Position numbers and translations under genes: made by a program. Positions 9,311 to 63,516 of a stretch of DNA of 64,000 nucleotides are shown in pieces (the stretch's first letter is position 1; every line of letters begins with the position of its first letter). The DNA is from Rudanella lutea DSM 19387 (GTDB lineage Bacteria > Bacteroidota > Bacteroidia > Cytophagales > Spirosomataceae): contig NZ_KB913013.1 of assembly GCF_000383955.1 (NCBI RefSeq), forward strand, positions 1,642,277-1,706,276, given 5' to 3'. The notes below the pieces were generated by a model. The model made no database searches. It was not told the origin of the DNA and worked only from the letters and a program-made list of their open reading frames with translations.

Positions 9311-9440
9311 AATGAGCGAATGAGTGAATGAGTGAATGGGCGAATACGGAACAAACGAATCAGCAGATGGGCACCCGACCAGGCGGGCATTCGCTCATCG
9401 AAACGTCAGACGGTCGCACAAGCACGCATTCGCTTATTAA
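9311..9440. repeat. Word-repeat hairpin H1 (TolC-HlyD spacer)
   Basis: The left arm (9311-9346) consists of repeats of GAATGAGTGAAT-like words. The right side carries the complementary GCATTCGCTCAT (9387-9398) and GCATTCGCTTATT (9426-9438). It fills the spacer between two co-directional genes; the arm starts directly after the HlyD start codon and reaches the TolC stop codon. Confidence 0.7.
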
Positions 9441-10975
9441 AATGCAATTGGTTTATTCTGATAAAAATCTAAAATCTTGGTGCGGAACACGTAGTCGTAC
9501 TTAGCCTGCACCAAACTGGCGCGAGCCCGGTCAAGGTTTGTTTTGGCAATGTTGTAATCGGTTCCATTGAGGGCACCCGCGTTGAAGCGGCTCTCGGCCA
9601 CCCGCAACGCCTGCTCCAGAGCCGTCACCTGCACCTGCGTAGCCCGGTAGCGGTTGAGCGAAGCCGTCAGGTTGGTGTAGGCCGTTTCGATCTGCTGCCG
9701 GAGCTGCAACCGGATATTGTCGGCGTTGAGCTGTGCATTTTGCTGCTGCAACGTGGCATTCATAATCTGAGTCCGGCTCAGTCGCTGATTAAAAATAGGC
9801 ACGTTGAGCGAAATCTGTAACGAACGGTTCAGGTTATTGCCCAGCTGATCGAAGAAACTGTAATCCTCAAACCGGAAGTTGTTCTGCGAGAAAAAGATCT
9901 GCTGCGACGAGCCATCGGGCAGAATAACCGTTTGCGGAATCTGCACGGTACCGTCGGGAATCCGGCGCTGAAGTCCTACGCTCGAAAACAGCGACGACAG
10001 GGAGCCGTTGAGCGACAAGCGCGGGTACAAACCCGCCCGGGCAATGTCGATGGCCCGACGGGCACTCTGCGTCCGCAAGTCGGCACCCAGCACCTGCGGC
10101 TGCGAGGCTACGGCTATTTCGTAAATCTGCTGGGCCGTAGCTGAGTAGGTTTCCACACGCGGATCGGGCAGCTTCAGGTACTCGATTTCAAAGTTTTGTC
10201 CACCCGGCAAATTCATGGCCTGCAACAGGGCCAGTTTGGCGAGATCGACGTTGTTTTGGGCGTTTACGATTGCCAGCTCATCGTTGGCGAGTTGGGCCCG
10301 CAAATCGAACAAATTGGCTTCAGGCAATGAACCTGCATTGACCAGCCGCTGGGTGCGATCGAGCTGCGCCTGCGTAGCCTCCAGTTGTCGACGGGCAATT
10401 TCGAGCTGCTCGGCGCCAGTGAGTACATTCAGGTATTGCTGCACCACCAGCAGAGCAGCGTCGTTTTGCGTAGCCGATAGTTCTTTCGAAGCGGCCTGTA
10501 CGTTGGTCTGGTTCTGAAGAATTTGGTTTTTCAGCTGAAAGCCCTGAAAGATTGGGACGTTGGCACCCACCTGAAAGTTGTTGGACCGAACGGCCTGATC
10601 GACAAACGTGTTGGTACCGGGGTTGATGTTACGACCCGAGCTAAGTCCCTGCGACACAAACCCGTTGACCGTGGGGAGCTGGTTGAACTTCGACTGCCGA
10701 AGCTGCAATTCGGAACCACGTACCTGAATCTGCCCCTGCTGAACCCGAATATTGTTCTGCAACGCCAAATCAACACATTGTTGTAACGACAGTACCGGCA
10801 CCCCGTTGGCCGCACTCGATGTAGCGACACCCGGCGTGGCGACACCCGGCGTGGCGACGCCCGGCGAAACCGCGTTGGGGGCCTGGGTATTCTGCGCCCA
10901 TGTCGCCCCGACTCCAGCCTGTAAGCACAGGGCCCCGATCAAGGCAGCCTTTCTCCACTCCACTCGCATATTCAT
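9437..10975 (-). CDS. TolC family outer membrane efflux protein
   Basis: An outer membrane channel of the TolC family, forming the trans-envelope tunnel for an adaptor/pump pair. A signal peptide (ending near GATWAQ) is followed by a low-complexity linker containing the five-residue unit PGVAT three times in a row (15-bp DNA repeats near 10825-10865). Then come two OEP domains with long Ala/Gln/Asn-rich helices and short beta segments (NVPIFQGFQLKNQ; NVPIFNQRLSRTQ). The total is about 512 residues. I chose the ATG at 10975; 10969 is equally possible, and the frame is open to a TTG at 10993. It is the middle gene of the ABC-TolC-HlyD operon. Confidence 0.92.
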   Translation of the reverse strand: MNMRVEWRKAALIGALCLQAGVGATWAQNTQAPNAVSPGVATPGVATPGVATSSAANGVPVLSLQQCVDLALQNNIRVQQGQIQVRGSELQLRQSKFNQLPTVNGFVSQGLSSGRNINPGTNTFVDQAVRSNNFQVGANVPIFQGFQLKNQILQNQTNVQAASKELSATQNDAALLVVQQYLNVLTGAEQLEIARRQLEATQAQLDRTQRLVNAGSLPEANLFDLRAQLANDELAIVNAQNNVDLAKLALLQAMNLPGGQNFEIEYLKLPDPRVETYSATAQQIYEIAVASQPQVLGADLRTQSARRAIDIARAGLYPRLSLNGSLSSLFSSVGLQRRIPDGTVQIPQTVILPDGSSQQIFFSQNNFRFEDYSFFDQLGNNLNRSLQISLNVPIFNQRLSRTQIMNATLQQQNAQLNADNIRLQLRQQIETAYTNLTASLNRYRATQVQVTALEQALRVAESRFNAGALNGTDYNIAKTNLDRARASLVQAKYDYVFRTKILDFYQNKPIAF

Positions 10976-11048: not shown

Positions 11049-11130
<82 letters not shown>

Positions 11131-16200: not shown

Positions 16201-16535
16201 CGATGGATGTCTTGCTCCAAAACGGTATCTTCAGCATTCCAACAGCCCCAAGTGCTCGCGTGGCAGCCAACCCCTCGGCCGAGGAGATTATCTGGCAGGC
16301 CTATCCCAACCCGGCCGAAGCCGAGGTGACGGTTGCCTATCCGGCAAGTCTGCCCCTGACCAACGTACGTACGCAACTTACTTCACTGGCAGGCATCAGC
16401 ACCGACGTACCGGTTCAACAGGCGCAACCGGGCAAACTCCGGGTGTCGCTGGGTAACCTCCCGGCAGGCCTGTACATTCTGCGCGTTCTCGACGGTAACC
16501 AGCCAGTTCAGGCGTTGAAGGTGATAAAACGATAA
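13239..16535 (+). CDS. SGNH/sialate O-acetylesterase-like protein with four tandem unknown domains and a T9SS signal
   Basis: A 1098-residue secreted protein. The signal peptide ends at VLAQ. An Ig-like segment is followed by an SGNH/GDSL-type carbohydrate esterase domain (about residues 120-360), with the Ser block VIAGQSNAFG and a late DDVHFGGSG block holding the catalytic Asp and His. An Ig-like module follows (about 365-465). Then come four copies of an unrecognised domain of about 100 residues (about 481-580, 618-718, 759-858, 901-998), joined by Pro/Thr-rich linkers. A C-terminal T9SS sorting domain (AYPNPAEAEV to ALKVIKR) ends the protein. The repeats share GYKYDMPSHGFQLL, LERLDGPF, PGVGGVEPGRYRLS and GDSGNGQ. 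They may bind carbohydrate, by inference from the attachment to an esterase. Confidence 0.88.
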   Translation: MNKFSLLWLLLWWPGMVLAQLNLTAPQSRIVYQRNGANQANIVVMGTAPQNATRVEARLVALTGGATTGWSPIGLLNANKAFRGSITGSGGWYRLEVRAWADGNLAAETSIDRVGVGEVFVIAGQSNAFGIQEAGGASDDRVSVVDFRDNDVNEQLLPMRFSHADGGGNVGPSNPLYIWGKLGDQLVSRLQVPVLFLGAAQPGTTSEEWRRSAEGDASLSGSLFPYRRLGSVLYHYIARTGVRAVLWHQGEGDIDRSGQAYIDNVRYVIDKSRQQANAGSMAWVVSRVSYTQGRNNPGIIQAQEQIINSVPNVFAGPNTDVLVGPENRFDDVHFGGSGLIQLIALWNLSLSNDFFSRSQPVSPSADAPATTAGYVLPNTTAPGRQIWVPYLNNSPGNSFKAQLLNSDGGVVTESSAGNQNPIALTLPGNLPGGNYRTRVVSAQYSVPGATGEVFRVVPGAAETGTQTPIQPATISGTADASISRLGYSYDMPSHGFHLLVSSSGPVEVRLERVDGGYFGETNWAPAGDNGEHPGFNKVRYYSPIAGGVGGVEPGRYRLSVRKAGDSGNGLQVEINLLNGRTTVFTTSDSTQPSPTTPTSPSVPTTPTSPPVTTTPSVDYVSQLGYKYDRPSHGFQLLVMAQGPVDLKLERLDGPFGETNWASGAITANFGAFNYFRNYSPAAPGVGGVEPGRYRLWARRAGTAGTEVSVEVTLQNGQFQAGVGTSTPTTTPIPQQPTENSVTPPAPTPAPVTGGSTSGQIRRIGYKYDMPSHGFQLLTDATGSVEVRLERLDGPFAQTNWGAVTASGEFGSYNGFRNYAPVAPGVGGVEAGRYRLSARLAGDTGNGQSVEITLGNGLFEAWAGSVTSPAPAPAQPAPQPTQPVTEAQPTAPTPTAPTGLIQSIGYKYDMPTHGFQLLSLATVAVQMRLERLDGSFADSNWGNATSSGQYNGYNNFRNYSPVAPGVGGVVPGRYRLSVRQVGDSGNGQSMDVLLQNGIFSIPTAPSARVAANPSAEEIIWQAYPNPAEAEVTVAYPASLPLTNVRTQLTSLAGISTDVPVQQAQPGKLRVSLGNLPAGLYILRVLDGNQPVQALKVIKR
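14681..16235 (+). repeat. Four in-gene tandem repeats encoding an unknown domain
   Basis: Coding repeats at about 14681-14980, 15091-15393, 15514-15813 and 15940-16235, separated by Pro/Thr-codon-rich linkers. Copies 2-4 are clearly closer to each other than to copy 1; for example, copies 2 and 3 share GGCTACAAATACGA and the glycine-rich PGVGGVE block. Confidence 0.85.
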
Positions 16536-16642
16536 AAGGAGAAGGAAAAAAGGAGGAAAAGAGAAGGGAGGAAGGAAGACTGCTTGCGGTTTTCCTTCCT
16601 CCCTTTTCCCTTTCTATCACCTTTTTCTCTTTCCTCCTTATT
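16534..16642. repeat. Word-repeat hairpin H3 (SGNH-GH3 spacer)
   Basis: A purine arm of GGAGAAGGAAAAAAGG-like words (16535-16579) faces a pyrimidine arm of CTTCCTCCCTTTTCCC-like words (16590-16640), with an 11-nt loop. It lies between two rightward genes, and the left arm begins at the SGNH stop codon. Confidence 0.8.
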
Positions 16643-16654
16643 GCCCTTTTTCCG

Positions 16655-25411: not shown

Positions 25412-25423
25412 TACATAGTGGGG

Positions 25424-25532
25424 ATTGGCACGCGGATGACGCAGATTGAACAGATTTTCGCGGATTAATAGCTAAAAGACTAATCTCCGTCCATCTGCCT
25501 GATCTGTGTCATCCGCGTTCCTGTTCAATCGT
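25424..25532. repeat. Word-repeat hairpin H4 (TonB-like-gcvT spacer)
   Basis: The left side (25424-25470), with CGCGGATGACGCAGAT, pairs with the right side (25481-25530), with ATCTGTGTCATCCGCG, 15 of 16 positions. The words GCAGATTGAACAGATT and CGCGGATT recur within the arm. It lies between co-directional genes. Confidence 0.8.
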
Positions 25533-25554
25533 GCGATCAAACCCCTAATTTCCG

Positions 25555-25562
25555 TACTTTTG
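25555..25562 (+). promoter_or_regulatory. TAnnTTTG -7 box of gcvT
   Basis: TACTTTTG, ending 7 nt before the ATG at 25570, within the same 15-mer that precedes the GH3 gene. It gives gcvT its own promoter although it follows the TonB-like pair. Confidence 0.6.
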
Positions 25563-25569
25563 CGGCACT

Positions 25570-26661
25570 ATGACCGTCAAACAGATACCGCTCCACTCCC
25601 TTCATCAACAGCTTGGAGCCAAGATAATCCCGTTCGCGGGCTTCGATATGCCCGTTCGTTACACGTCTGACCTCGACGAACACCACACCGTTCGCAACGG
25701 CGTTGGTATCTTCGATGTCTCGCACATGGGCGAGTTTATTGTCAAAGGCGACGATGCCTGCGCGCTCATCAGCCGCGTATCGGCCAATGACCCCACCCTG
25801 CTCTTCGACGGAAAAGTGCAGTACAGCTACCTGCCCAACGGCAAAGGCGGCATTGTCGATGACCTGCTCGTGTACCAAATTAGCCCGGTTGAGTTTATGC
25901 TTGTGGTCAATGCCTCCAACATCGACAAAGACTGGGCCTGGATCAACAGCCACGTGGGCGACCTGAACGTGGAGCTGGTGAATGTTTCAGATGGTATGTG
26001 TCTGTTTGCGGTGCAGGGCCCGTTGGCGGCTCAGGCGCTACAGCCGCTCACCAATGCCAGGCTCGACGCCATGTCGTACTACACGTTTGAGAAAACCGAC
26101 TTTGCCGGTCAGGCCAACGTGATTGTGTCGGCTACGGGCTACACGGGCGCGGGTGGCTTCGAGATTTATGTCTCCAACCATCAGGCTGAGGCCGTCTGGA
26201 ATGCCATTATGGAAGCCGGTGCCCCCCACGGTATCAAGCCCATCGGGCTGGGAGCCCGCGACACCCTGCGGCTCGAAATGGGTTACTGCCTGTACGGCAA
26301 CGACATCAGCGACGAGACCTCGCCTATCGAAGCGGGCCTCGGCTGGGTCACTAAATTCTCGCATGATTTTATCGACGCCGACGTGCTCAAAGCCCAGAAA
26401 GAGCAGGGCGTAACCCGCAAACTGGTGGGATTCGAGCTGCTCGACCGGGGCATTCCGCGGGCGCACTACCCCCTCTGCACGGCCGACGGCACGGTGGTGG
26501 GTGAGGTAACGTCGGGCACACAGTCGCCCACGCTCGGCAAGGGGATCGGTATGGGCTACGTACCCGCCGAACTAGCCAAACCCGGCACCGAACTCTTTGT
26601 GCAGGTACGCGACCGCCTGCTGAAAGCTCAGGTTGTTAAACTGCCATTTATCAAGAAATAA
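25570..26661 (+). CDS. gcvT: Glycine cleavage system T protein (aminomethyltransferase)
   Basis: A 363-residue cytoplasmic tetrahydrofolate-dependent aminomethyltransferase. It transfers the methylene carbon from the aminomethyl-lipoyl H protein to tetrahydrofolate and releases ammonia. Family blocks are visible: IPFAGFDMPVRY, GIFDVSHMGEF, QYSYLPNGKGGIVDDLLVY, GYTGAGGFEIY, GLGARDTLRLEMGYCLYGND and EVTSGTQSPTLGKGIGMGYV. It has full normal length. The gcvH and gcvP genes are not in the window, as is common in this phylum. It is followed by comB after a purine/pyrimidine hairpin. Confidence 0.97.
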   Translation: MTVKQIPLHSLHQQLGAKIIPFAGFDMPVRYTSDLDEHHTVRNGVGIFDVSHMGEFIVKGDDACALISRVSANDPTLLFDGKVQYSYLPNGKGGIVDDLLVYQISPVEFMLVVNASNIDKDWAWINSHVGDLNVELVNVSDGMCLFAVQGPLAAQALQPLTNARLDAMSYYTFEKTDFAGQANVIVSATGYTGAGGFEIYVSNHQAEAVWNAIMEAGAPHGIKPIGLGARDTLRLEMGYCLYGNDISDETSPIEAGLGWVTKFSHDFIDADVLKAQKEQGVTRKLVGFELLDRGIPRAHYPLCTADGTVVGEVTSGTQSPTLGKGIGMGYVPAELAKPGTELFVQVRDRLLKAQVVKLPFIKK

Positions 26662-26742
26662 AGGGAATGGGAAGAAGGGAACAAGGAGAAGGGTTATGTA
26701 CTCTTCACACCTTTTTCCCTTCTCCGGTTTTCCTTCTCCCCT
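26661..26742. repeat. Word-repeat hairpin H5 (gcvT-comB spacer)
   Basis: A purine arm of GGGAAGAAGGGAACAAGG-like words (26661-26694) and a complementary pyrimidine arm (26709-26742) fill the 81-bp spacer. The pyrimidine arm directly touches the comB ATG. Confidence 0.8.
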
Positions 26743-27453
26743 ATGAAAAACATTGACGTTTGTATTACCCCCGAACTACTCCACCTGCACAAGATCGACA
26801 ACACGATTGTGGTGGTAGCCGATGTGTTCCGGGCCACTTCGTGCATGGTTACGGCCTTTGCGTACGGTGTTGAGAGTATTATCCCCGTAGCAACGGTGGA
26901 TGAGTGCCGCGACCTGCAAAGCCGGGGGTTTCTGGCCGCAGCCGAGCGCAACGCCCAGAAAGTAGAAGGCTTCGACCTCGACAACTCGCCGTTTAGCTAC
27001 ATGGACGACCACATTCGGGGGGCGCAGGTAGCCATGACCACCACCAACGGCACGCTGGCCATCACCAAGTCGCGGTCGGCGGTGAAAGTACTGGTGGGGT
27101 CGTTTCTGAATCTGGATGCCATTGTGCGCTACCTCAAATCGCAACCGTACGACGTACTGGTGCTTTGCGCGGGCTGGAAAGGCCGGTTCAATCTGGAAGA
27201 CACCCTCTTTGCCGGGGCTTTGGTGGAGCGGCTCAAAGACACGTACATGATGGCCGAAGACAGCACCATTATGGCCTGGCGGCTGTACTGTCAGGGGCAG
27301 GATAACCTCATTCAGTACCTCGCCAACTCGTCGCACATCCGGCGGCTGCAACGTCTGGGTATTCAGAAAGACATTGCCTACTGCCTGCAACACGACCTGT
27401 ACGACGTAGTACCCGTACTGCGCGGCAATGCCCTGGTCAATATGGGACGGTAA
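26743..27453 (+). CDS. comB: 2-phosphosulfolactate phosphatase family protein
   Basis: A 236-residue enzyme of the ComB family. The characterised archaeal member hydrolyses 2-phosphosulfolactate to sulfolactate in coenzyme M biosynthesis; bacterial members may act in sulfonate metabolism. Recognisable blocks are VVVADVFRATSCMVTAFAYG, NGTLAITKS and LCAGWKGRFNLEDTLFAGA. No other coenzyme M or sulfolactate genes are nearby, so the reaction in this organism is uncertain. It probably shares a transcript with gcvT. Confidence 0.88.
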   Translation: MKNIDVCITPELLHLHKIDNTIVVVADVFRATSCMVTAFAYGVESIIPVATVDECRDLQSRGFLAAAERNAQKVEGFDLDNSPFSYMDDHIRGAQVAMTTTNGTLAITKSRSAVKVLVGSFLNLDAIVRYLKSQPYDVLVLCAGWKGRFNLEDTLFAGALVERLKDTYMMAEDSTIMAWRLYCQGQDNLIQYLANSSHIRRLQRLGIQKDIAYCLQHDLYDVVPVLRGNALVNMGR

Positions 27454-27471
27454 GGGGTAAGCTACTTATAA

Positions 27472-27509: not shown

Positions 27510-27530
27510 CGTATAGTCTCAAGACCGGAT

Positions 27531-30865: not shown

Positions 30866-30942
30866 TTTCAGTGAACAATGAGCAGCGAACAACGAACAGT
30901 TAACTGCCTACCGCTAACTGTTAGCTGTTCATTATTCACTGC
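30866..30942. repeat. Word-repeat hairpin H6 (emrA-emrB spacer)
   Basis: The left arm (30868-30904; AACAATGAGCAGCGAACAA-type words) is complementary to the right arm (30913-30942; GCTAACTGTTAGCTGTTC and similar). The right arm contains the stop codon of the emrA-like gene. Both genes run leftwards. Confidence 0.8.
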
Positions 30943-36388: not shown

Positions 36389-36484
36389 GATTATGAATTG
36401 AGTGATGAACGATAAGTGATGAGTGATGAACGTGGCTTACGCGTTAGCAAGCTCATCAATCATCGTTTATCATTCATCATTAGC
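36388..36484. repeat. Word-repeat hairpin H7 (membrane protein-GT2 spacer)
   Basis: The left arm (36388-36432; GAGTGATGAACGATAAGTGA-type words) pairs with the right arm (36451-36481; CATCAATCATCG, TTTATCATTCATCATT). The right arm encodes the last residues (LMMNDKR) of the upstream membrane protein. Both genes run leftwards. Confidence 0.8.
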
Positions 36485-38894: not shown

Positions 38895-38990
38895 TTGGGG
38901 AGAAGGGAGGAAAGGGAGGAGGGAAGAAAGGAGAATCAACTACCGCTGGGGCGCTTTTCGCACTCCTCACTCCTATCTCCTCACTCCTTA
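38895..38990. repeat. Word-repeat hairpin H8 (LptG-DMT spacer)
   Basis: A purine arm of GGGAGGAAAGGGAGGAGGG-like words (38897-38933) and a pyrimidine arm of CACTCCTCACTCCTATCTCC-like words (38961-38989), between two leftward genes. Confidence 0.8.
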
Positions 38991-48339: not shown

Positions 48340-48535
48340 GACGTCTTGGTTTGTTGTTTTTGGTTTATGGTTTTGGGTTTTTGGAGGGGCAGTTGGCGAC
48401 CCGGCTTCGGACTTGAGCGGAAATAAGTATACACCACTCACCATCAAAACCATTCCCTTTCAAAGGCCAGGAACCGGAACACAAACCGCAAAACCCAAAC
48501 CAAAAACGATAAACCAAAAACGATAAACCCAGCAC
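48340..48535. repeat. Word-repeat hairpin H9 (desaturase-kinase spacer)
   Basis: The left arm (48343-48383; GTTTTTGGTTTATGG-type words) and the right arm (48483-48531; AAACCAAAAACGATAAACC-type words) are complementary, with a loop of about 100 nt. Both flanking genes run leftwards. Confidence 0.75.
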
Positions 48536-49586: not shown

Positions 49587-49712
49587 CGTGTGCAACTACT
49601 TCAGTAATGGACATTCAGACTTCAGATACCAGACATTAGACTTACTACCATTCTGTAGAGAAGTCTAACGTCTAATGTCCAACATCTAATGTCTAGTACT
49701 GAGTGCAACTAC
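49587..49712. repeat. Word-repeat hairpin H10 (desaturase-acyltransferase gap)
   Basis: The left arm (49589-49647; AGACATTAGACTTACTA and variants) pairs with the right arm (49658-49711; AGTCTAACGTCTAATGTCC and variants), including the outer words GTGCAACTAC near both ends. This is the only member of the group between divergent genes. Confidence 0.75.
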
Positions 49713-54179: not shown

Positions 54180-54278
54180 TTGGTACGCAGAGATGCACTG
54201 AGGGAAAAGAGATACGCAGAGAACCACTAAAACCTCTCTGTGAATCTCCTTTATTCTCTGCGAATCTCTGTGTAATAA
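54180..54278. repeat. Word-repeat hairpin H11 (HlyD-ABC spacer)
   Basis: The left arm (54184-54222; ACGCAGAGATGCACTGAGG, GAGATACGCAGAGA) pairs with the right arm (54233-54274; CTCTCTGTGAATCTCC, TCTCTGCGAATCTCTGTGT). It lies between two rightward genes. Confidence 0.8.
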
Positions 54279-54981: not shown

Positions 54982-55425
54982 CTACAAAAACCCGTTCAGA
55001 TCCAGATTCAGGACTTCGGAGAAGGCGGTTTCGGTGGTGAGGCCGCCATCGCCCAGCCGGTAACGGAGCCATCGACCGGTTCGATAGTCATACAGGAATC
55101 CCTCCCGAATACCATACAGTTCATCATCAATGAGTTGTATGATTTTTCGTAAATCCCCTTTTAGTCCGTCAGTGTGACAAACTTCGATGATAACGGGTGT
55201 CTGTGCGGCTTCATTATCGCGGAGTAGAAGGTCTGGGACCTGGCTGGCTTTACCCTGATCGAGCATCGTTTCAGGTAGTGGCTCCAACCGAATGCATTGC
55301 TCCCGATAATACAAGACCCCCAAACCAACCGTCAGCCTGGCAATTACACGCTGATGCTCAATGGGCGCCCAAACGCCAAGGTCTTCGTGAGCAAACGTCG
55401 GTTGCGTTGTAGATGGGAAATACAT
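54982..55425 (-). CDS. Uma2 family (DUF820) putative endonuclease, copy 1
   Basis: A 147-residue protein of the Uma2 family, predicted PD-(D/E)XK nucleases of unknown role that are multiplied in Cyanobacteria and some Bacteroidota. The core VPDLLLRDNEAAQ, then TPVIIEVCHTDGLKGDLRKI, holds the Asp, Glu and Lys expected of the fold, although the usual E-V-x-S reads E-V-C-H. FLYDYRTGRWLRY is the typical strand after the core. It lies antisense inside the export cluster, 3 bp from the ABC ATPase stop, and so looks like an insertion between ATPase and permease. Confidence 0.8.
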   Translation of the reverse strand: MYFPSTTQPTFAHEDLGVWAPIEHQRVIARLTVGLGVLYYREQCIRLEPLPETMLDQGKASQVPDLLLRDNEAAQTPVIIEVCHTDGLKGDLRKIIQLIDDELYGIREGFLYDYRTGRWLRYRLGDGGLTTETAFSEVLNLDLNGFL

Positions 55426-55461
55426 AAGACATCGCTTTTTACAAACTTAACTAACTCCAGT

Positions 55462-57891
55462 ATGTTCCACAACTTCCTCAAAATCGCCTGCCGCACTCTG
55501 TGGCGTAGCCGGGGGTATGCCGCTATTCACATGCTGGGGTTAGCCGTGGCGTTTTGCATCAGCCTGTTCCTGACCCTGATTGCCTATCAGCAACTTACTT
55601 TCGATTCGTTTCACGCCGACAGTGACCGGATTTATCAGACCTACCTGTTTGCCAACGACCCCGAAAAGCCGCTCAGAACCGGAGCCATGCCCATGCCCGT
55701 TGTACCGGCCCTCAAGGCTGATTTTCCGGAGGCAGAGGCCGTTACCCGCGTGATGACCGGCCGCAAGAGCCTGGTCGAGTCGGAGGGTACGTATTACGAA
55801 AAGCTTATCAATTATACCGACGCCGACTTTCTAAACGTGTTTTCGTTCCCGCTGCGGGCGGGTCACCGGGCCTCGGCCCTGCGCGACCCCGGCAGTGTGG
55901 TCATCAGCGAAAACATGGCGCAGGATGTGTTCGGAACGGCCAACCCGATTGGGAAGCGCCTGCGCCTTGGACAGGATGGCCAACTAACCGACTTTACGGT
56001 AACGGGCGTTTTGGCCGATGCCCCCACCAACTCAACCATTCAGTACGACGCCCTGGTTCGGATTGAGCGCTCGCCCAATTACGCGGCCCGCCTGAACAAC
56101 TGGAACGACGGCGGACCAATGGTTTTCGTGAAGCTACCGGCTCATGTCGACAAGGCCAGCTTTGAGGCCCGGCTGAAACCGTTCTCGCTGAAGTATTTTA
56201 CCACCCGACTCGACGACCTGATTCAGAAAAAGGCCCAACCCGATGACCGGGGCGATAAGCTGGCGATTCGGCTGCAACCACTCCGCGATGTGCACTTCAA
56301 CCGCGAAATCAACGACGGCAAAGGCACGCCTATCGCCATTGTTTACGTGTTGCTGGGGCTGGCGTTTTTTATCCTGCTTATTGCCTGCATCAACTTCATC
56401 AACCTGAGCATTGCCCGCTCAGTGACGCGGGCGCGAGAGGTGGGCGTTCGGAAATCGCTCGGTGCGCCTTCTCGGAGCTTATTTGCGCAGTTGTGGGGCG
56501 AATCGGCGTTGTTGTGCGGGCTCGGTTTCGTAGCTGGTCTGACGCTCGCCGTCATACTCCTGCCAACATTCAATGCCACATTTGGGGCGCACCTAACGCT
56601 TGCTCAGGCCTACCAGCCTGGTTTTATTGGCCTGATTCTGGCCCTTTTTCTGCTCGTAACGCTCATGGCGGGCGGCTACCCAGCCTGGCAAATGACCCGG
56701 CTCCAAACCGTTCAGGTACTTAAAGGCAACCTCGCAACCGGCCGACCAAGCCGCCTGCGCAACGCCCTGCTCATCACTCAGTTTACGCTCTCATGCCTGC
56801 TCACCTGTTGTACCCTGATTGCCTTTGAACAGGTCGATTTTCTGCGTCAAATGCCGCTTGGTTTCGACAAAGAGCAGGTTATCAGCATCCCGGTAGGAAC
56901 ACAGGTCGACGGGCGGCAGGTGCTCGGGCGGCTACGTCAGGTACTGGCCCACGACCCCACAATTCTGTCGCTGACAGGAGCGAGCGTAAATTTGGGCAAA
57001 GGTAAAGACCGGGTCACCTCGCGGACTACGTTTGGGTTTACCAGCAACGGCAAAGATATTGTCTCGGATGTACTGTTTGTCGATTACGACTACCTCCAGA
57101 CCTTACGCATCAAACCCACGGCCGGCCGCGATTTTAGCCGGACCTTTGCCACCGACTCTGCCAACCGGGTAGTCATTACCGAGAGCATGGCCCGGTTGCT
57201 GGGCAAGCCCAATCCGGTGGGAATGCTACTCGGCGACGATGCCGACACCACCGGCAACAAAGCGCAGATTATCGGCGTGGTGCCCGACTTTCAGCTGTAC
57301 TCAGTAGCCGACGAAACGCGCCCTATCACACTCTATCTGTCCAACAGCCAGCCACTGCATTATATTTTTGTTCGGGTGTTGCCCCAACACCTACCGGTCG
57401 CGATGGACAAGCTAAAGGCAACCTGGGCGACGGTAGCCCCGCAGTCGCCGTTTATGGGCTCCTTTCTGGACGAGAACGTAGACGCCTGGTACCAGAACGA
57501 GACCGTTTTTTCGCAGGTTCTGAGTCTGGCGTCGGGGATTGCCGTGGTCTTGTCGTGCATCGGTTTGTTTGCCATTGCGTTGCTGACGGTTGAGCAGCGA
57601 ACCAAGGAAATAGGCATTCGCAAGGTGATGGGAGCTACCGTTCCCGGTATTGTTCTGTTGCTCTCGCGGCATTTCATCCGGCTGGCGCTCATGGGCCTTT
57701 GTTTAGCCGTTCCCATCGCGTGGTTTGGCATGCATCAGTGGCTCGACAAGTACGCGTACCGGATCGAAATCAGCCCGTGGCTCTTCGTGACAGTCGGCAT
57801 GGGTGCCTTATTGATTACCCTTGTCACGGTTAGCTACCAAAGCATTCGGGCCGCCCTCATGAACCCTGCCAAATCACTAAAAACGGAGTAA
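55462..57891 (+). CDS. FtsX-type ABC transporter permease 1
   Basis: A 809-residue permease of the MacB/FtsX class with two repeats. Each has a leading membrane helix, a large periplasmic MacB_PCD domain and three FtsX helices. The first helix is MLGLAVAFCISLFLTLIAY. The first FtsX block begins LLGLAFFILLIACINFINLSIARS with the coupling segment RAREVGVRKSLGA; the second has the coupling segment EQRTKEIGIRKVMGA. Such proteins work as mechanotransmitters or exporters with a MacB-like ATPase. I chose the ATG at 55462, at the conserved N-terminus MFHNFLKIACRTLWR; the open frame starts earlier, inside the antisense Uma2 gene. Confidence 0.93.
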   Translation: MFHNFLKIACRTLWRSRGYAAIHMLGLAVAFCISLFLTLIAYQQLTFDSFHADSDRIYQTYLFANDPEKPLRTGAMPMPVVPALKADFPEAEAVTRVMTGRKSLVESEGTYYEKLINYTDADFLNVFSFPLRAGHRASALRDPGSVVISENMAQDVFGTANPIGKRLRLGQDGQLTDFTVTGVLADAPTNSTIQYDALVRIERSPNYAARLNNWNDGGPMVFVKLPAHVDKASFEARLKPFSLKYFTTRLDDLIQKKAQPDDRGDKLAIRLQPLRDVHFNREINDGKGTPIAIVYVLLGLAFFILLIACINFINLSIARSVTRAREVGVRKSLGAPSRSLFAQLWGESALLCGLGFVAGLTLAVILLPTFNATFGAHLTLAQAYQPGFIGLILALFLLVTLMAGGYPAWQMTRLQTVQVLKGNLATGRPSRLRNALLITQFTLSCLLTCCTLIAFEQVDFLRQMPLGFDKEQVISIPVGTQVDGRQVLGRLRQVLAHDPTILSLTGASVNLGKGKDRVTSRTTFGFTSNGKDIVSDVLFVDYDYLQTLRIKPTAGRDFSRTFATDSANRVVITESMARLLGKPNPVGMLLGDDADTTGNKAQIIGVVPDFQLYSVADETRPITLYLSNSQPLHYIFVRVLPQHLPVAMDKLKATWATVAPQSPFMGSFLDENVDAWYQNETVFSQVLSLASGIAVVLSCIGLFAIALLTVEQRTKEIGIRKVMGATVPGIVLLLSRHFIRLALMGLCLAVPIAWFGMHQWLDKYAYRIEISPWLFVTVGMGALLITLVTVSYQSIRAALMNPAKSLKTE

Positions 57892-57983
57892 AGGAGAAAG
57901 GAGGAGAGGAAACGCAAGCGCGGCCATTCCTTCCACCCTTCTGCCTTCCTCCCTTCTGCCTTCCTCCGTTTCTCCCTTTCATC
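57889..57983. repeat. Word-repeat hairpin H12 (permease 1-permease 2 spacer)
   Basis: The purine arm (57892-57913) and a longer pyrimidine arm (57928-57979; CTTCTGCCTTCCTCC repeated) are joined by the loop ACGCAAGCGCGGCCA. Nearly the same loop occurs in H13, which indicates common descent of the two spacers. Confidence 0.8.
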
Positions 57984-57985
57984 CC

Positions 57986-60421
57986 ATGTTAACAAACTAT
58001 CTGAAAATCGCCTGGCGGAATCTGATGCGCCACAAGGGTATCTCGGCCATCAACCTGGTAGGGCTGGCTCTTGGCCTGGCTACCTGCCTGCTCATCAGCC
58101 TGTTTGTATTCGATGAACTGAGCTACGACCGGTTCAACACCAAAGCGGACCGGATTGTGCGGGTCATTTTCCGGGCCTCGATCAACAACGAGAAAATTCG
58201 GGAGGCCACCGTGATGCCCCCCGTGGCCCAGACCCTCAAAGCCGAATACCCGGAGGTGCTCGAAGCCACCCGGATTCGGGATGCCGGTACGCCCGTTGTG
58301 GCCTATGCCGACAAAGCGTTTCGGGAGGAGAATATCGCCTATGTGGATTCCAATTTTTTCGAGGTGTTTACGCTGCCCTTCCGGCAGGGCAACCCCCAAA
58401 CGGCCCTCAACGCGCCCAACACGGCTGTGATTACGACCACCCTGGCGCAGAAATACTTCGGTACCACCAACCCCATGGGTAAGGTGCTCACGTTTAAGGG
58501 CTGGAACCGTGCCTTTCGGGTTACGGGCGTGATAGAACCCATACCAACCAACGCCCATTTTCATTTCGATATGCTCGCTTCCATGGCGGGCCTCGACGAA
58601 GCCCGGGAGCCAACCTGGATGGCCAGCAATTTCTTTACCTACCTCGTACTACCTGAAGGGTACGACCATCACCAATTGGAAGCCAAACTCCCGCAGGTGA
58701 TCGAAAAATACATGGGCCCGCAACTCAAACAGTCTATGGGTATGAGCCTGAGTCAGTTCCGGCAAAAAGGCAATGAGGTCGGGCTGTTTCTGCAACCCCT
58801 CACCGACATTCACCTGCGGTCCGACATCCCGTTTGACCTTGAGCCGGGCAGCGATATCCGGTATGTGTACATGTTCGGGGCTATTGCGCTCTTTATGCTG
58901 CTTATTGCCTGCATCAACTTCATGAATCTGAGCACAGCGGGGTCGTCGAAGCGAGCGCGGGAGGTGGGTATTCGCAAGGTGATGGGCTCTCTGAAGCAGG
59001 AATTGGTCGGCCAGTTTTTGTGCGAATCGATTCTGCTGACGCTGCTGGCGCTATCGCTCGGGCTGGTGTTAGCCTACGCGGCCCTGCCCTATTTCAACAG
59101 CCTCTCGGGCAAAACATTAACGCTTTCGTTTCAATCGGTTCCCTGGCTGGTGCCGGGTCTGCTGGTGTTCGGGCTGCTGGTGGGCTTGCTGGCGGGCAGC
59201 TATCCGGCCTTTTTTCTGTCGGCATTTCGGCCGGTCAACGTACTGAAGGGTGGTTCGTCAGCCGGCAAATTGGCGGGGGGTAGCCAAAGCATCGGATTGC
59301 GCCGGGGGCTGGTTGTATTTCAGTTTTTTGTTTCTATCTGCCTCATCATGTGCACCACGGTGGTGTACCAACAACTTCAGTTTATCCAGCACAAAAAGCT
59401 CGGTTACGACAAAGAGCAGGTGCTGGTTATGCGCGAAACGTGGCGACTGGGGGCCAAAGAAGAACAGTTTCGGCAGGCACTTCTGCGCGATGCCCGCGTG
59501 ACCAACGCAACCGTATCGGGGTATGTACCTGCGGGGCCTTCCAACTCCAACAACTTCACGGTGTACCCCGACAACAGCCCCATGCAACTGTTCAAAACGC
59601 TGGCCTACGAGGTCGATGAGCGGTACATCCCGACATTGGGGATGCAGATTCGGCAGGGGCGCAACTTTTCGCGGGCGTTCGGTACCGACTCAACGGCCGT
59701 TATTCTGAACCAAACGGCCGCCCGGGTGCTGGGCTGGGGCGACGCAGCGCTTGGTCATACGCTTTCGCGCACCGACCACAACGGCCGCAAAGCCACGTAC
59801 CACGTGATCGGTATTGTCAACGATTTTCATTTCCGGTCGCTACACGAGCCCATTTCGCCCTTAGTGATGCTCTACGGACACAATGGCGGCTCGGTGATTG
59901 CCAAGGTTAAAACCCCGGAGGTTACCGCCCTGCTCGCCAGTCTGCAAAAACAGTGGACGGCCTACGGCACCGAAGCGCCCTTTCTGTACACTTTTCTGAA
60001 CGAAAGCTATAACAACACCTACCGCGCCGAGCAAAAAACCGGTCAGATTCTGGGCCTGTTTGCGGGGCTGACCATTTTTGTGGCCTGTCTGGGTCTGTTT
60101 GGGCTGGCCATGTTTACCGCTGAGCAGCGTACGAAGGAAATCGGTGTGCGGAAGGTGCTTGGAGCGTCGGTACTCGGCATTGTGGCCCTGCTCTCGCGCG
60201 ACTTTCTCAAGCTCGTGGCCATCGCCATTCTGCTGGCTTCGCCGGTGGCCTGGTGGGCCATGCAGCACTGGCTACAGGGATTTGCCTACAAAATCGACAT
60301 GAGTATCGGGGTCTTTGTGGGGGCGGGCGGCCTGGCCATCCTCATCGCTCTGCTCACCGTCAGCTACCAAAGCATCAGGGCTGCCCGAGTAAACCCGGTG
60401 AAGAGTTTGCGAAGTGAGTAA
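57986..60421 (+). CDS. FtsX-type ABC transporter permease 2
   Basis: An 811-residue paralogue of permease 1. The N-terminus is MLTNYLKIAWRNLMRHKGISAINLVGLALGLATCLLI. The first coupling segment is RAREVGIRKVMGS and the second EQRTKEIGVRKVLGA; the protein ends with SYQSIRAARVNPVKSLRSE. It has the same two-repeat arrangement with eight helices. It is the second of at least four tandem permeases and is closer to permease 3 than to permease 1 by motif. The repeated duplication suggests either heteromeric complexes or several alternative permeases for one ATPase. Confidence 0.94.
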   Translation: MLTNYLKIAWRNLMRHKGISAINLVGLALGLATCLLISLFVFDELSYDRFNTKADRIVRVIFRASINNEKIREATVMPPVAQTLKAEYPEVLEATRIRDAGTPVVAYADKAFREENIAYVDSNFFEVFTLPFRQGNPQTALNAPNTAVITTTLAQKYFGTTNPMGKVLTFKGWNRAFRVTGVIEPIPTNAHFHFDMLASMAGLDEAREPTWMASNFFTYLVLPEGYDHHQLEAKLPQVIEKYMGPQLKQSMGMSLSQFRQKGNEVGLFLQPLTDIHLRSDIPFDLEPGSDIRYVYMFGAIALFMLLIACINFMNLSTAGSSKRAREVGIRKVMGSLKQELVGQFLCESILLTLLALSLGLVLAYAALPYFNSLSGKTLTLSFQSVPWLVPGLLVFGLLVGLLAGSYPAFFLSAFRPVNVLKGGSSAGKLAGGSQSIGLRRGLVVFQFFVSICLIMCTTVVYQQLQFIQHKKLGYDKEQVLVMRETWRLGAKEEQFRQALLRDARVTNATVSGYVPAGPSNSNNFTVYPDNSPMQLFKTLAYEVDERYIPTLGMQIRQGRNFSRAFGTDSTAVILNQTAARVLGWGDAALGHTLSRTDHNGRKATYHVIGIVNDFHFRSLHEPISPLVMLYGHNGGSVIAKVKTPEVTALLASLQKQWTAYGTEAPFLYTFLNESYNNTYRAEQKTGQILGLFAGLTIFVACLGLFGLAMFTAEQRTKEIGVRKVLGASVLGIVALLSRDFLKLVAIAILLASPVAWWAMQHWLQGFAYKIDMSIGVFVGAGGLAILIALLTVSYQSIRAARVNPVKSLRSE

Positions 60422-60439
60422 AAAGGGGGAAGAGTCACC

Positions 60440-60919
60440 TCACCGTCGAATATGCCGAAATATTTGTTTGAAGGGAATTTGAATATGCGTTACAGGATCT
60501 TCAATAATTCCTTCGGTAAATGTCCGCTGTTTTCCGTCGGGAGTACGGATAAGTATGGTTTGTACTAACGGCATCACGATCCAAACCGACTGTACACCCG
60601 AGGGGAAGTAGATCGTATTCATTTTATCAGTTATCTCTTTCATCCCCTGTTTGGGTGAAAGAACTTCCACAGCAATGATAGGCGGCTCAGTCAGAAAAAT
60701 AATGTCGCTGTCCCAATCTTCGGGTAGGTTATGAAACACAGCCACATCAGGCTTAACGGGTTTGCCATTCAGCTTCAGTTCCAGTTCGGGGAAGGTATCG
60801 TACACTTCGTCATACTGCTCAAAATGAACGCTGATACGCTGAATGGTTCGTGAGTGATTTACAGACATAATGTCTTCAGAAATGAACTCCTCAATTGTAT
60901 CGACCGAATTAGCTTCCAT
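60440..60919 (-). CDS. Uma2 family (DUF820) putative endonuclease, copy 2
   Basis: A 159-residue Uma2-type protein. The core KPDVAVFHN, then PPIIAVEVLSPKQGMKEITDKMNTIYFPSGVQSVWIVMP, contains the classical Asp, E-V-L-S and Lys arrangement of the family, so its active site looks intact, unlike copy 1. I chose the ATG at 60919; the frame opens at 60964. It lies antisense between permeases 2 and 3, with gaps of only 18 and 45 bp, and replaces the hairpin spacer found in the other permease gaps. Confidence 0.85.
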   Translation of the reverse strand: MEANSVDTIEEFISEDIMSVNHSRTIQRISVHFEQYDEVYDTFPELELKLNGKPVKPDVAVFHNLPEDWDSDIIFLTEPPIIAVEVLSPKQGMKEITDKMNTIYFPSGVQSVWIVMPLVQTILIRTPDGKQRTFTEGIIEDPVTHIQIPFKQIFRHIRR

Positions 60920-60964
60920 AACCGAACGAGATTTTTTCAAAGATACCCAAAAACCAGTCAACAA

Positions 60965-63424
60965 ATGCTAACGAATTACCTCAAAATCGCCCTCCGCAAC
61001 CTGCGAAAACAGCCCGGCTTAACGTTCATCAACGTCTTTGGGCTGGCTCTGGGACTGGCCTGTTGCCTGCTTATTATGCTCTATGTGACCGACGAGCTGA
61101 GCTACGACCGGTTTCACGCCAAAGCCGACCGCATCTACCGGTTGGGCATTGATGTTAAATTCAACGGGATTGATGCTCAGATGGCCACCGTTCCCGATCC
61201 GCTCGGCCCCACGCTGAAACAGGATTACCCGCAGGTTGAGCAGTTTGTGCGCCTGCATCCGCAGGGAACGTGGCAAGTGAAACGACCCGAATCGGCAGTA
61301 GCTATCCGTGAGCAGAATGTTCTCTTTGCCGACTCCACAGTATTCGATGTTTTTACGCTGCCGCTCTTATCGGGCAACCCCAAAAAGGCGCTGAGTCAGG
61401 CCAATACGATCGTCATCAGTGAGACAGCAGCCCGGCGGCACTTCGGCAATGCTGACCCCGTGGGCAAAACGCTTAGCCTCGACAACCGACTGACGTTTAC
61501 GATCACGGGCGTGATGCGCGACCTGCCCTCAAACAGCCATTTCAAAGCCGATTTTCTGGTCACCATGCTCAGTGATGGATCACCCGTTGGTGAGTGGCTG
61601 GGCAACAACTACTACACTTACATTGTGTTGAAGGAAGGGCGCTCCGGCGAACCGGCCAACCCCGATACCTTCGTTAAAAACCTCGAAGCCGTCACAAAGA
61701 AATACGTTGGTCCTCAGCTGCAGAGTGTACTGGGGCTGTCGCTGGCGAAACTCCGGGCGGGTGGCAACCAGCTTCGGTACACCATGATGCCCATGACCGA
61801 CATTCATCTGCGCTCCAAACATCAAAATGAGCTACTCCCCAGTGGCGACATTCAGTACATCTATATCTTCTCGGCCGTAGCCCTGTTTATCCTGCTCATC
61901 GCCTGCATCAACTTCATGAACCTGGCTACGGCCCGCTCGGCCAAACGCGCGCGCGAAGTGGGTGTCAGAAAAGTGCTGGGTTCGGAGCGGGGGCAGTTGG
62001 TGAGTCAGTTCATGGCCGAGTCGGTACTCACCACGGTGCTGGCTATGGGACTGGCCCTGCTGCTAGTGAGCCTCGCGTTGCCGCTGTTCAACAGGCTGGC
62101 CGCTAAAGAAATTGGTTTGGGGCAGTTGCTAAGCCCGCACTGGCTACTCGCGCTAACGGTGTTCCCGATAGTGGTAGGCCTGCTGGCCGGTAGTTACCCC
62201 GCTTTTTTCCTGTCGGGTTTCCGACCCATCAGCGTACTCAAAGGCGGCATACCCACCATTGGGAAGGATGGGTTTCAGCTGGGCAAATTGAGTCTGCGGA
62301 GTGGTCTGGTGGTGTTTCAGTTCATGATGTCGGTGGCGCTCATGGTAAGCACTATTGTCGTGTACCGGCAAATCACCTACATACAGACCAAAAACCTCGG
62401 CTTTCAACGCGATCAGGTCCTGATTATCAACGATACCTACGCGCTGGATAGACAGACCGAAGCCTTTCGGCAGGAGGTTCTGAAATTACCGGGCGTGGTG
62501 AGCGGGTCGGTGTCGGGCTACCTGCCTACACCCTCTAACCGCTCCAACACGATATTTTTCGTGGAAGGTGAGGTAAATAAAAACAAAGGGGTGACGATGC
62601 AAAACTGGGGTGTAGACCACGACTACATCAAAACGCTGGGTATGCAGATGGTGGCTGGGCGCGATTTTGCACGAACGTTTGGCACCGACTCGCTGGGCAT
62701 CATTTTGAACGAAACAGCCGCCAAACTCTTTGGCGGGCCAAGTGTGCTGGGCAAACGCATTGTCCGGCTCAACGACGCTTCGCTGGGGACCCAAAAGGTG
62801 TACACGGTGATTGGCATTGTGAAGAATTTCCACTACGAATCGCTCCGCTCCACCATCGGTGCCGTATCGCTCTCCCTCGACCGAAACACAGGTGCCACCA
62901 CGTTCCGGCTGCACGATGCGAATATCTCCACGCTGGTGAGTCAGATTGAAGCCAAATGGAAGCAAATGACCCCCGGTATGCCGTTCAACTACGAGTTCAT
63001 GAACGCGAGTTTCGAGCAGACGTACCGCGCCGAGCAACGTGTTGCCACGCTCGCCCTGACGTTTGCGGGCCTGGCTATTTTCATCGCCTGCCTCGGTCTG
63101 TTCGGGCTGGCAACCTTTACCGCTGAGCAGCGTACCAAAGAAATCGGCGTGCGAAAAGTACTCGGAGCCAGCGTTACCAGCATCGTGGCGCTGCTGTCGA
63201 AAGACTTTCTCAAACTGGTGCTGATTGCCATTATTATGGCCTCGCCCGTGGCCTGGTACGTCATGGACCGCTGGCTGCAGGATTTCGCCTACAAAGTCGA
63301 CATCGAGTGGTGGGTATTTGCCGGGGCGGGTGTGTTGGCGGTAGGCATTGCGCTTTTGACGGTGAGTTTCCAGAGTATCAAAGCGGCACTTGTCAATCCG
63401 GTGAAATCACTAAAAACGGAGTAA
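60965..63424 (+). CDS. FtsX-type ABC transporter permease 3
   Basis: An 819-residue paralogue of permeases 1 and 2. The start at 60965 (MLTNYLKIALRNLRKQPGLTFINVFGLALGLACCLLI) matches permease 2; the open frame begins earlier but overlaps the antisense Uma2 gene. The coupling segments are RAREVGVRKVLGS and EQRTKEIGVRKVLGA, and the C-terminus is ALVNPVKSLKTE. It has the normal two-repeat MacB_PCD/FtsX arrangement. Confidence 0.94.
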   Translation: MLTNYLKIALRNLRKQPGLTFINVFGLALGLACCLLIMLYVTDELSYDRFHAKADRIYRLGIDVKFNGIDAQMATVPDPLGPTLKQDYPQVEQFVRLHPQGTWQVKRPESAVAIREQNVLFADSTVFDVFTLPLLSGNPKKALSQANTIVISETAARRHFGNADPVGKTLSLDNRLTFTITGVMRDLPSNSHFKADFLVTMLSDGSPVGEWLGNNYYTYIVLKEGRSGEPANPDTFVKNLEAVTKKYVGPQLQSVLGLSLAKLRAGGNQLRYTMMPMTDIHLRSKHQNELLPSGDIQYIYIFSAVALFILLIACINFMNLATARSAKRAREVGVRKVLGSERGQLVSQFMAESVLTTVLAMGLALLLVSLALPLFNRLAAKEIGLGQLLSPHWLLALTVFPIVVGLLAGSYPAFFLSGFRPISVLKGGIPTIGKDGFQLGKLSLRSGLVVFQFMMSVALMVSTIVVYRQITYIQTKNLGFQRDQVLIINDTYALDRQTEAFRQEVLKLPGVVSGSVSGYLPTPSNRSNTIFFVEGEVNKNKGVTMQNWGVDHDYIKTLGMQMVAGRDFARTFGTDSLGIILNETAAKLFGGPSVLGKRIVRLNDASLGTQKVYTVIGIVKNFHYESLRSTIGAVSLSLDRNTGATTFRLHDANISTLVSQIEAKWKQMTPGMPFNYEFMNASFEQTYRAEQRVATLALTFAGLAIFIACLGLFGLATFTAEQRTKEIGVRKVLGASVTSIVALLSKDFLKLVLIAIIMASPVAWYVMDRWLQDFAYKVDIEWWVFAGAGVLAVGIALLTVSFQSIKAALVNPVKSLKTE

Positions 63425-63516
63425 AGGAGGAAGGAGTAAAGGGAGAAAGGAAACGCAGGCGCGGCCATCCCCTTCTCCCTTTACTCACCTTCCCCCCTCT
63501 CCTCCCTCTCCTCCTA
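63421..63516. repeat. Word-repeat hairpin H13 (permease 3-permease 4 spacer)
   Basis: A purine arm (63423-63448; GGAGGAAGGAGTAAAGGG) and a pyrimidine arm (63469-63515; CTTCTCCCTTTACTCACC and CTCCTCCCTCTCCTCC), with the loop ACGCAGGCGCGGCCA shared with H12 except for one base. Confidence 0.8.

What the first reader, a model, noticed from the sequence alone, without database searches (positions are those of the whole stretch)
9311..63516. Thirteen word-repeat intergenic hairpins with a shared design but different sequences
Spacers at 9311, 11049, 16534, 25424, 26661, 30866, 36388, 38895, 48340, 49587, 54180, 57889 and 63421 have one architecture. A short degenerate word (for example GGCAGTG, GAATGAGT, GGAGAAGG, GATGAGTGAT, AGACATTAG) is repeated several times in the left arm, and its reverse complement is repeated in the right arm, around a loop of about 10-100 nt. 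The word is different at almost every locus, so the structure is conserved and the sequence is not. Twelve of the 13 lie between co-directional genes; convergent pairs instead carry compact perfect terminators. This points to an intra-operon role (mRNA processing, attenuation, differential stability) or to a self-propagating hairpin process such as template switching plus slippage. I know no named element with these properties.
Basis: partly seen in the sequence, partly recalled or inferred. Interest (0 to 1): 0.82.

Follow-up and report, generated by a model that had tools for sequence, protein, structure and literature searches.

The report
Rapidly swapped word-repeat hairpins after genes
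Just after the stop codons of many genes, this bacterium and its relatives carry long hairpins built from repeated 7-9-letter words, and sister species can hold hairpins made of different words at the same spot, so the fold may be kept or renewed while its sequence is replaced.

Summary
The class is real. In 664 kb of this Rudanella-like genome I count 62 word-repeat hairpins. They lie almost only in gaps: 48/217 co-directional, 13/50 convergent, 1/67 divergent; they hug stop codons (median 4 nt) and lack a T-run. Words are not unique per locus: about ten families recur. One of the 13, at 49587, is a MITE. Against R. paleaurantiibacter, 14 of 24 hairpin gaps were replaced versus 23 of 95 others. 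Four gaps hold different words; an outgroup shows that one, GGCAGT to purine, replaced an existing hairpin. Of five window hairpins with an orthologous outgroup gap, four are missing there, two at ATGA or TAATG overlaps. After gcvT in 80 Bacteroidota loci, 32 carry a long stem (0.2 expected), by eye about 25 word hairpins with words differing by lineage. One inverted loop, arms re-made together and 7/8-nt indels point to template switching plus slippage. Closest known: cyanobacterial STRR hairpins. Compensatory changes are nearly absent, so a selected 3'-UTR role is plausible but unproven.

The parts
9310..9439 (-). decayed GAATGAGTG (8-nt word) hairpin
   Evidence: stem 15/17, 1/500 shuffles; MFE z only -0.2; orthologous gap of equal length in R. 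paleaurantiibacter
11050..11128 (-). GGCAGT-word hairpin, 35/36 paired
   Evidence: 0/500, z -7.7; absent from R. paleaurantiibacter, other sequence there
16526..16650 (+). purine-word (GGAGAAGG) hairpin, followed by a TACTTTTG promoter-like sequence
   Evidence: 47/55 paired, 0/500, z -6.8; sequence
25427..25521 (+). CGCGGAT/GCAGATG (9-nt word) hairpin
   Evidence: 0/500, z -6.1; word repetition weak (27/500); two tandem hairpins in R. paleaurantiibacter; none in outgroup SUN052, gap 42 nt
26669..26741 (+). purine-word hairpin between gcvT and the 2-phosphosulpholactate phosphatase gene
   Evidence: 1/500, z -3.0; outgroup has an ATGA gene overlap instead
30869..30941 (-). AACAATG/AACAGC-word hairpin
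   Evidence: 0/500, z -6.2; outgroup gap 7 nt
36408..36467 (-). GATGA-word hairpin that includes the stop codon and last codons of the upstream gene
   Evidence: 1/500, z -3.4; similar words present in the outgroup
38901..38988 (-). weak hairpin whose arms carry different purine words (GGAGTGAGGAGATA vs GGGAGGA); GATGAGT words in R. paleaurantiibacter
   Evidence: 31/500, z -2.9; word swap; outgroup TAATG overlap
48345..48532 (-). GGTTTAT/GGTTTTTG-word hairpin, long
   Evidence: 58/79 paired, 0/500, z -3.9
49600..49702 (.). MITE (not the same class): TTCAGTAATGGACATT...TAGTACTGA flanked by GTGCAACTAC on both sides
   Evidence: absent from R. paleaurantiibacter
54184..54274 (+). CGCAGAGA-word hairpin
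   Evidence: 0/500, z -4.9; word repetition weak (53/500); kept in sister species
57882..57970 (+). purine-word hairpin with loop AAACGCAAGCGCGGCCAT
   Evidence: 0/500, z -2.5; loop related to that of 63418
63418..63505 (+). purine-word hairpin with loop AAACGCAGGCGCGGCCATC
   Evidence: 0/500, z -4.2; shorter in sister species

Best explanation
These are STRR-like word-repeat hairpins: non-coding inserts (median span 91 nt) gained at or just after stop codons, in at least two cases between genes whose stop and start overlap in an outgroup. Each is made of 7-9-nt words from a vocabulary of about ten families in this genome, mostly G-rich in the 5' arm. Shown: they are gained, lost and swapped at the same gap between close species; gaps with them change by 7- and 8-nt steps, as slippage gives; in some the arms are re-made together and in one the loop is inverted, as replication template switching inside an inverted repeat would do. 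Inferred: the DNA process keeps producing near-perfect hairpins, and those landing behind a stop codon persist because the mRNA folds there into a strong 3'-UTR hairpin (blocking 3'-to-5' decay, or separating and tuning neighbouring genes), or at least because they do no harm there. How a new word enters a gap is not shown.
For: Excess over shuffles; 77 word stems in 109 kb non-coding against 1 in 555 kb coding (MITE copies included); post-stop placement and divergent depletion; recurring words; own arms pair better than every cross partner of the family in 29 of 51 hairpins, with higher mean in all 7 families tested; turnover 14/24 against 23/95, p = 0.0025, MITE-bearing gaps removed; different words at 1578681, 1642153, 1770711, 1681168, with 1770711 polarised by an outgroup; hairpins at places where the outgroup has ATGA and TAATG overlaps; inverted loop at 1560560; indels of 7/8 multiples 6/12 against 2/31, p = 0.003; stems 4.2% diverged against 9.2% in hairpin-free gaps, p = 7e-8 (one of the 11 kept gaps also holds a MITE); 32/80 gcvT 3' gaps across Bacteroidota.
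Against: In hairpins kept between the two species changed pairs are mostly broken (14 broken, 3 G-U, 1 compensatory), so pair-by-pair selection is not visible. Only one inverted loop among the 30 loop pairs compared, word and other stems together. Of nine other-genome loci fetched for the GGCAGT word, a word hairpin shows only at L138; most matches elsewhere are direct repeats or coding. Loops of same-word hairpins are mostly unrelated, so how words spread is unexplained. No RNA data; the insertion event was not observed.
Confidence: 0.55

Rival explanations
1. Each word family is a degenerate transposase-mobilised palindrome (MITE or REPIN-like) that inserts behind genes; words are the eroded body of the element.
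For: 49587 is a MITE with duplicated flanks; the AATGTAT and purine families share loops (4/15 and 6/36 pairs); one AATGTAT hairpin sits between CACTTA repeats with a shorter site in the sister species (1790763, by inspection); Y1_Tnp genes are present, 4 in G000.
Against: 0 of 51 loop pairs related in five other families; no target duplication seen beyond the stop/start overlap at 26662 and 38892; G132 has 28 GGCAGT matches but no Y1_Tnp.
Confidence: 0.2
2. They are ordinary transcription terminators or other RNA hairpins under selection, each invented locally; the words are only a by-product of slippage.
For: Post-stop position, presence in convergent gaps, near absence in divergent gaps; slow stem divergence; a hairpin swapped for another at 1770711.
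Against: No T-run: 3 of 48 have 6 or more T in the 10 nt after the stem; 30 of 48 end under 30 nt before the next start; hardly any compensatory change; the same words recur across loci and genera, not expected of local invention.
Confidence: 0.2
3. A reverse transcriptase or telomerase-like enzyme writes G-rich word repeats from an RNA template.
For: 7-9-nt period and G-rich strand running towards the loop in 55 of 62, 44 of 51 without the purine family.
Against: No RVT_1 match in G000 or G001, and in only 1 of 10 genomes searched.
Confidence: 0.02
4. Chance pairings in compositionally biased spacers.
For: Single spacers such as 38892 are weak (31/500) and 9311 has MFE z -0.2; shuffled AT-rich loci of other Bacteroidota gave 4 stems of 16 or more against 55 real.
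Against: Summed shuffle expectation 0.03 at stem score 16 or more over co-directional plus convergent gaps, against 69 of 169 observed (its 'co' row includes convergent gaps).
Confidence: 0.01

Closest known systems
STRR (short tandemly repeated repetitive) sequences of filamentous cyanobacteria
   Same: Usually 7-bp repeats between genes, able to form a hairpin, one example near the 3' end of a preceding gene; transcript stability, translational coupling or termination proposed (passages of PMC2670836).
   Different: Here in Bacteroidota, with about ten vocabularies in one genome, word repeats in both arms, exchange of vocabulary at the same gap between sister species, and placement at once after the stop codon. 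The cyanobacterial words were not compared.
TAACTGA heptamer direct repeats (MacGregor 2015, PMC4679880)
   Same: Heptamer repeats between genes in Beggiatoaceae, cyanobacteria and five Bacteroidetes (abstract and sections 9 and 10 read).
   Different: One word, direct repeats not predicted to fold, in the main species mostly just before start codons.
Template-switch-made RNA hairpins (PMC8794818) and arm homogenisation with spacer inversion (PMC8604942)
   Same: Arms re-made as a unit, inverted loops, perfect stems in one step; G-C pairs more frequent than C-G (abstracts of both and passages of the first).
   Different: Described there for microRNA, rRNA and yeast coding sequences, not as a dispersed class behind bacterial genes.
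REP/REPIN elements with RAYT transposases (start of abstract of PMC3733652; RAYT link recalled)
   Same: Dispersed palindromes between genes; Y1_Tnp genes are in the genome.
   Different: REPs are 20-40 bp with a tag at one end; these are 55 nt or longer with variable words.
MITEs (definition recalled)
   Same: 49587 is one.
   Different: Most word families show unrelated loops, and no target duplication was seen at the two overlap sites examined.

Membership tests
STRR hairpins | tandem repeats of about 7 nt | tested here: met
   lag 7 or 14 in 48 of 70 strongly repeated word stems, 8 or 15 in 20, 13 and 9 in one each (sister species and MITE copies included)
STRR hairpins | non-coding, able to form a hairpin | tested here: met
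STRR hairpins | cyanobacterial host | tested here: not met
   host is related to Rudanella, Spirosomataceae
STRR hairpins | the named STRR heptamers | not tested
   cyanobacterial words not compared
Intrinsic terminator | T-run after the stem | tested here: not met
   3 of 48 with 6 or more T in 10 nt; mean 3.04 against 2.79 from gap composition
MITE | conserved terminal inverted repeats and target duplications | tested here: inconclusive
   met for 49587; CACTTA at one AATGTAT hairpin; not seen at 26662 and 38892
REP/REPIN-RAYT | 20-40 bp palindrome | tested here: not met
   median span 91 nt, minimum 55
REP/REPIN-RAYT | associated Y1_Tnp transposase | tested here: inconclusive
   present in 9 of 10 genomes, absent from G132, which has the words
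TAACTGA repeats | TAACTGA direct repeats before start codons, no predicted hairpin | tested here: not met
   other words, hairpins, post-stop
Any Rfam family | match above the gathering score | tested here: not met
   0 matches in the window
Template-switch hairpins | loop inversion or concerted arm change between relatives | tested here: met
   1 inverted loop of 30 pairs; concerted arms at 1639205 and 1800788 by inspection

The most novel reading that the evidence does not exclude
Behind bacterial stop codons there are 'hairpin slots': natural selection keeps a hairpin there but not its sequence, and a continuous supply of ready-made word hairpins from a genome-specific vocabulary swaps one for another, so the fold outlives every sequence that builds it. 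The vocabulary changes from genus to genus across Bacteroidota, and the same process made the cyanobacterial STRRs.
Probability: 0.3. Interest if true: 0.82.

Novelty: new variant of a known kind. Interest (0 to 1): 0.64.

Why it matters
By extrapolation from 62 in 664 kb, about 600 gaps in this one genome, and many genera of a major phylum, would carry 3' hairpins that homology searches cannot follow because the sequence turns over faster than the genes. If the fold is selected, this is a natural case of structure kept while sequence is exchanged wholesale; if it is not, it is an abundant self-renewing mutational product that reshapes operon junctions. It would also tie together scattered reports of heptamer repeats in cyanobacteria, Beggiatoaceae and Bacteroidetes.

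Tried and rejected
Reverse-transcriptase origin: no RVT_1 in G000 or G001. A shared loop core as proof of a common element: the heptamer CGCAAGC is enriched (6 of 61 loops against 0.1-0.2 expected), but partly from neighbouring paralogous MacB loci, and loop likeness is limited to three families. Compensatory change as proof of selection: not found in word hairpins (1 of 18 changed pairs; 10 of 35 in other stems; p = 0.07 with the one doubly broken pair left out). Pattern matches in other genomes as proof of hairpins: not borne out, since of the nine loci of other genomes fetched with the GGCAGT word only L138 shows a word hairpin. Similar hairpins on plasmids: no match for three queries (BLAST filters simple repeats, so this is weak). 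Paper search for six of the words as letter strings: 0 papers. Extending the outgroup: only 15 gaps of the 264-kb region had an orthologous gap in the SUN052 stretches taken.

Limits: the gene caller, the stem score and the 'word' threshold are my own. Gaps outside 40-500 nt, 30-700 nt and 30-600 nt were not scanned. MITE-like stems were removed by motif before the counts but not; one search repeats the turnover count without them. The purine family was partly picked by its purine content, which helps the G-rich count; without it 44 of 51 remain. 'Replaced' means gap similarity below 0.8; 5 of 128 gaps had no orthologue and 2 of 123 were left out as too long. Target duplications, concerted arms and the 25-to-7 split after gcvT are by inspection. 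The 'co' row printed includes convergent gaps.

Full report
What is there. The window lies in a 6.55-Mb Rudanella-like genome (Spirosomataceae; one search gives the genome, a GcvT protein 100% identical to that of R. paleaurantiibacter). The 13 spacers were read and tested against 500 dinucleotide shuffles each. Twelve have a stem that at most one shuffle reaches; 38892 is weaker (31/500). Folding energies lie 2.4 to 7.7 standard deviations below shuffles except at 9311 (z -0.2). The spacer at 49587 is different in kind: its ends (TTCAGTACTGGACATT, up to 1 mismatch) match 69 times in the genome against 0 for the reversed pattern. It is flanked by GTGCAACTAC on both sides, and among the 12 loci printed (several rows cut off) I see duplicated flanks of 8-9 bp at L155, L157 and L162. 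It is a MITE.

The class in the genome. In 464 kb, 69 of 169 co-directional plus convergent gaps of 40-500 nt hold a stem scoring 16 or more against an expectation of 0.03 (that is 45 of 136 co-directional and 24 of 33 convergent), and 4 of 51 divergent gaps do. After separating word-repeat stems from compact ones and removing MITE-like copies, 62 word hairpins remain in 664 kb: in 48 of 217 co-directional, 13 of 50 convergent and 1 of 67 divergent gaps of 30-700 nt. Scanning whole stretches gives 77 word stems in 109 kb of non-coding and 1 in 555 kb of coding sequence (MITE copies not removed). The co-directional hairpins start a median of 4 nt after the stop codon and end a median of 15.5 nt before the next start; in gaps with more than 60 nt to spare 14 of 17 lie nearer the stop (p = 0.013); only 3 of 48 are followed by a T-run. 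The 5' arm is G-rich in 55 of 62 (p = 2e-10) against 42 of 83 other stems, and in 44 of 51 if the purine family, partly picked by composition, is left out.

Words. The period is 7 (or 14) in 48 of 70 strongly repeated stems and 8 (or 15) in 20 (before removal of MITE copies and with the sister species included). By a motif sorting of my own the 62 fall into about ten families: purine GGAGAAA 11, GAGTGAAT 8, GGTTTTTG 8, AATGTAT 7, GAACAACG 7, CAGTTTAC 5, GGCAGT 5, GATGAGT 3, ACAGGATT 3, two families of one and 3 unsorted. The two arms of one hairpin fit each other better than arms taken from other hairpins of the family: own arms beat every cross partner in 29 of 51, and the own mean exceeds the cross mean in all seven families tested. 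Loops are related (z above 3) in 6 of 36 purine, 4 of 15 AATGTAT and 1 of 21 GAACAACG pairs and in none of 51 pairs of five other families; across families 0.2% of 1151 pairs reach this.

Turnover between sister species. In 264 kb aligned with R. paleaurantiibacter (flanking DNA 85-99%, typically 92% alike), 123 of 128 gaps had an orthologue and 121 were used. Of 24 with a word hairpin in our genome and no MITE motif, 14 were replaced (similarity below 0.8), against 23 of 95 of the others (p = 0.0025; with two MITE-bearing gaps 15 of 26, p = 0.002). Four gaps carry different words: 1578681 (AACAATG against GGCAGT), 1642153 (AACAACG against CAGTTTAC), 1770711 (GGCAGT against purine) and 1681168, which is window 38892 (purine against GATGAGT). 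The first three keep no more likeness than shuffles; 1681168 keeps a purine remnant, and its stem in our genome is the weak one. The outgroup 'Flavobacterium' sp. SUN052, by protein identity a close relative, carries a GGCAGT hairpin at 1770711, so the sister species exchanged an existing GGCAGT hairpin for a purine one. At other places the same words were re-made: in the sister species 1639205 is a perfect palindrome with a changed base mirrored in both arms; 1800788 differs in both arms together (by inspection); at 1560560 the loop is inverted (inverted score 28, direct 6, null maximum 10), the only inverted one of 30 loop pairs. In the kept gaps indels are multiples of 7 or 8 in 6 of 12 with word hairpins against 2 of 31 with other stems. 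In the 11 kept word-hairpin gaps stems differ at 4.2% of sites against 9.2% in hairpin-free gaps and 18.5% at third codon positions beside them, but changed pairs are mostly broken: 14 broken, 3 G-U, 1 compensatory.

Gain. Five window hairpin gaps have an orthologous gap in SUN052; eight have none. Four lack the hairpin there: 26662 is an ATGA overlap of gcvT and the next gene, 38892 a TAATG overlap, 30862 a 7-nt gap, 25412 a 42-nt gap that keeps the promoter-like part. The fifth, 36389, has related GATGA words in the outgroup, and its stem reaches into the coding sequence. So I read the hairpins as inserts between stop and start. Loss in SUN052 is possible but would have had to restore exact overlaps.

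Across the phylum. In 80 Bacteroidota loci around gcvT, 32 have a stem of 15 or more within 170 nt of the stop codon (0.2 expected); by eye about 25 are word hairpins and 7 compact. The words differ by lineage: CACAGAGA in Fibrivirga, three vocabularies in three Fibrella species, TTTACGG or CGGATTG in Larkinella, AGACATTAG-like or TTGAATGG in Pontibacter, GTCATTG in Mucilaginibacter. A stricter scan of whole loci found 6 word stems in the 25 Spirosomataceae and 13 in the 55 other loci; one shuffle of each gave 0 and 4 stems of any kind. The pattern GGCAGTNGGCAGTNGGCAGT (up to 2 mismatches) occurs in 34 of 148 genomes of the phylum, in several with tens of copies; the reversed control is mostly 0, yet some genomes are rich in the reversed word, so vocabularies differ between genomes. 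These matches are not all hairpins: of nine loci of other genomes looked at, only L138 shows one. GATGAGT words occur in 20 of 148.

Function. The hairpins behave as 3' features: next to stop codons, in convergent gaps too, almost never in divergent ones. They are not canonical terminators, and 30 of 48 leave under 30 nt before the next start, so the next gene probably depends on read-through in many cases (inference). I think the most likely role is that of a 3'-UTR hairpin that blocks decay or separates neighbouring genes, with the hairpins supplied by a mutational process. Mere tolerance in a place without promoters is not excluded, and the near absence of compensatory changes counts against strict selection.

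Known kinds. Cyanobacterial STRRs are usually 7-bp repeats that can fold into hairpins between genes, for which transcript stability or translational coupling has been proposed (passages of PMC2670836). TAACTGA repeats are heptamers without predicted hairpin (PMC4679880, abstract and two sections). Template switching is reported to create stems, homogenise arms and invert spacers (PMC8794818, abstract and passages; PMC8604942, abstract). In the listings of my paper searches I saw no description of word-swapping hairpins in Bacteroidota; this library lacks most subscription journals.

Noticed in passing
35498-35660: Long imperfect inverted repeat (arms about 80 nt, AGAAGCTGTTTGAGTTAGCG...) resembling stems at L101 18736 and L096 14308; looks like a second MITE family, not word-built.
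   Followed up: no
25422-42326: DNA identity to R. paleaurantiibacter is 95.5% over this block, with flanks up to 99%, against about 86-92% in most neighbouring blocks, which suggests a recently exchanged stretch.
   Followed up: no
7247 and 7869: Two copies of a compact terminator core ACGAACGCCCGGCCGATGTCGGCCGGGCGTTCGT about 620 nt apart.
   Followed up: no
33336-33713: Gap with inverted copies of a CCCCCTCCTGTTTTTCAGGAGGGGG unit.
   Followed up: no
L098 8801, L100 17166, L106 3165, L093 14669: A recurring GAGATGACATCTC...GAGATGTCATCTC palindrome in convergent and other gaps.
   Followed up: no
L156 (G000:C1:1614332): The MITE sits inside the loop of a GAATGAGTG word hairpin, in both sister species.
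   Followed up: partly
L011: Record named Flavobacterium sp. SUN052 encodes two proteins 87% and 95% identical to this Rudanella-like genome; the name looks wrong.
   Followed up: no
55297-63424: Three MacB/FtsX-type permease genes with purine hairpins after two of them; R. paleaurantiibacter has at least eight such matches in the same region. Copies in G000 beyond the window were not counted.
   Followed up: no
G123, G138, G115, G035 (control columns): Genomes rich in the reversed heptamer (TGACGGN repeats), the control word for GGCAGT.
   Followed up: no
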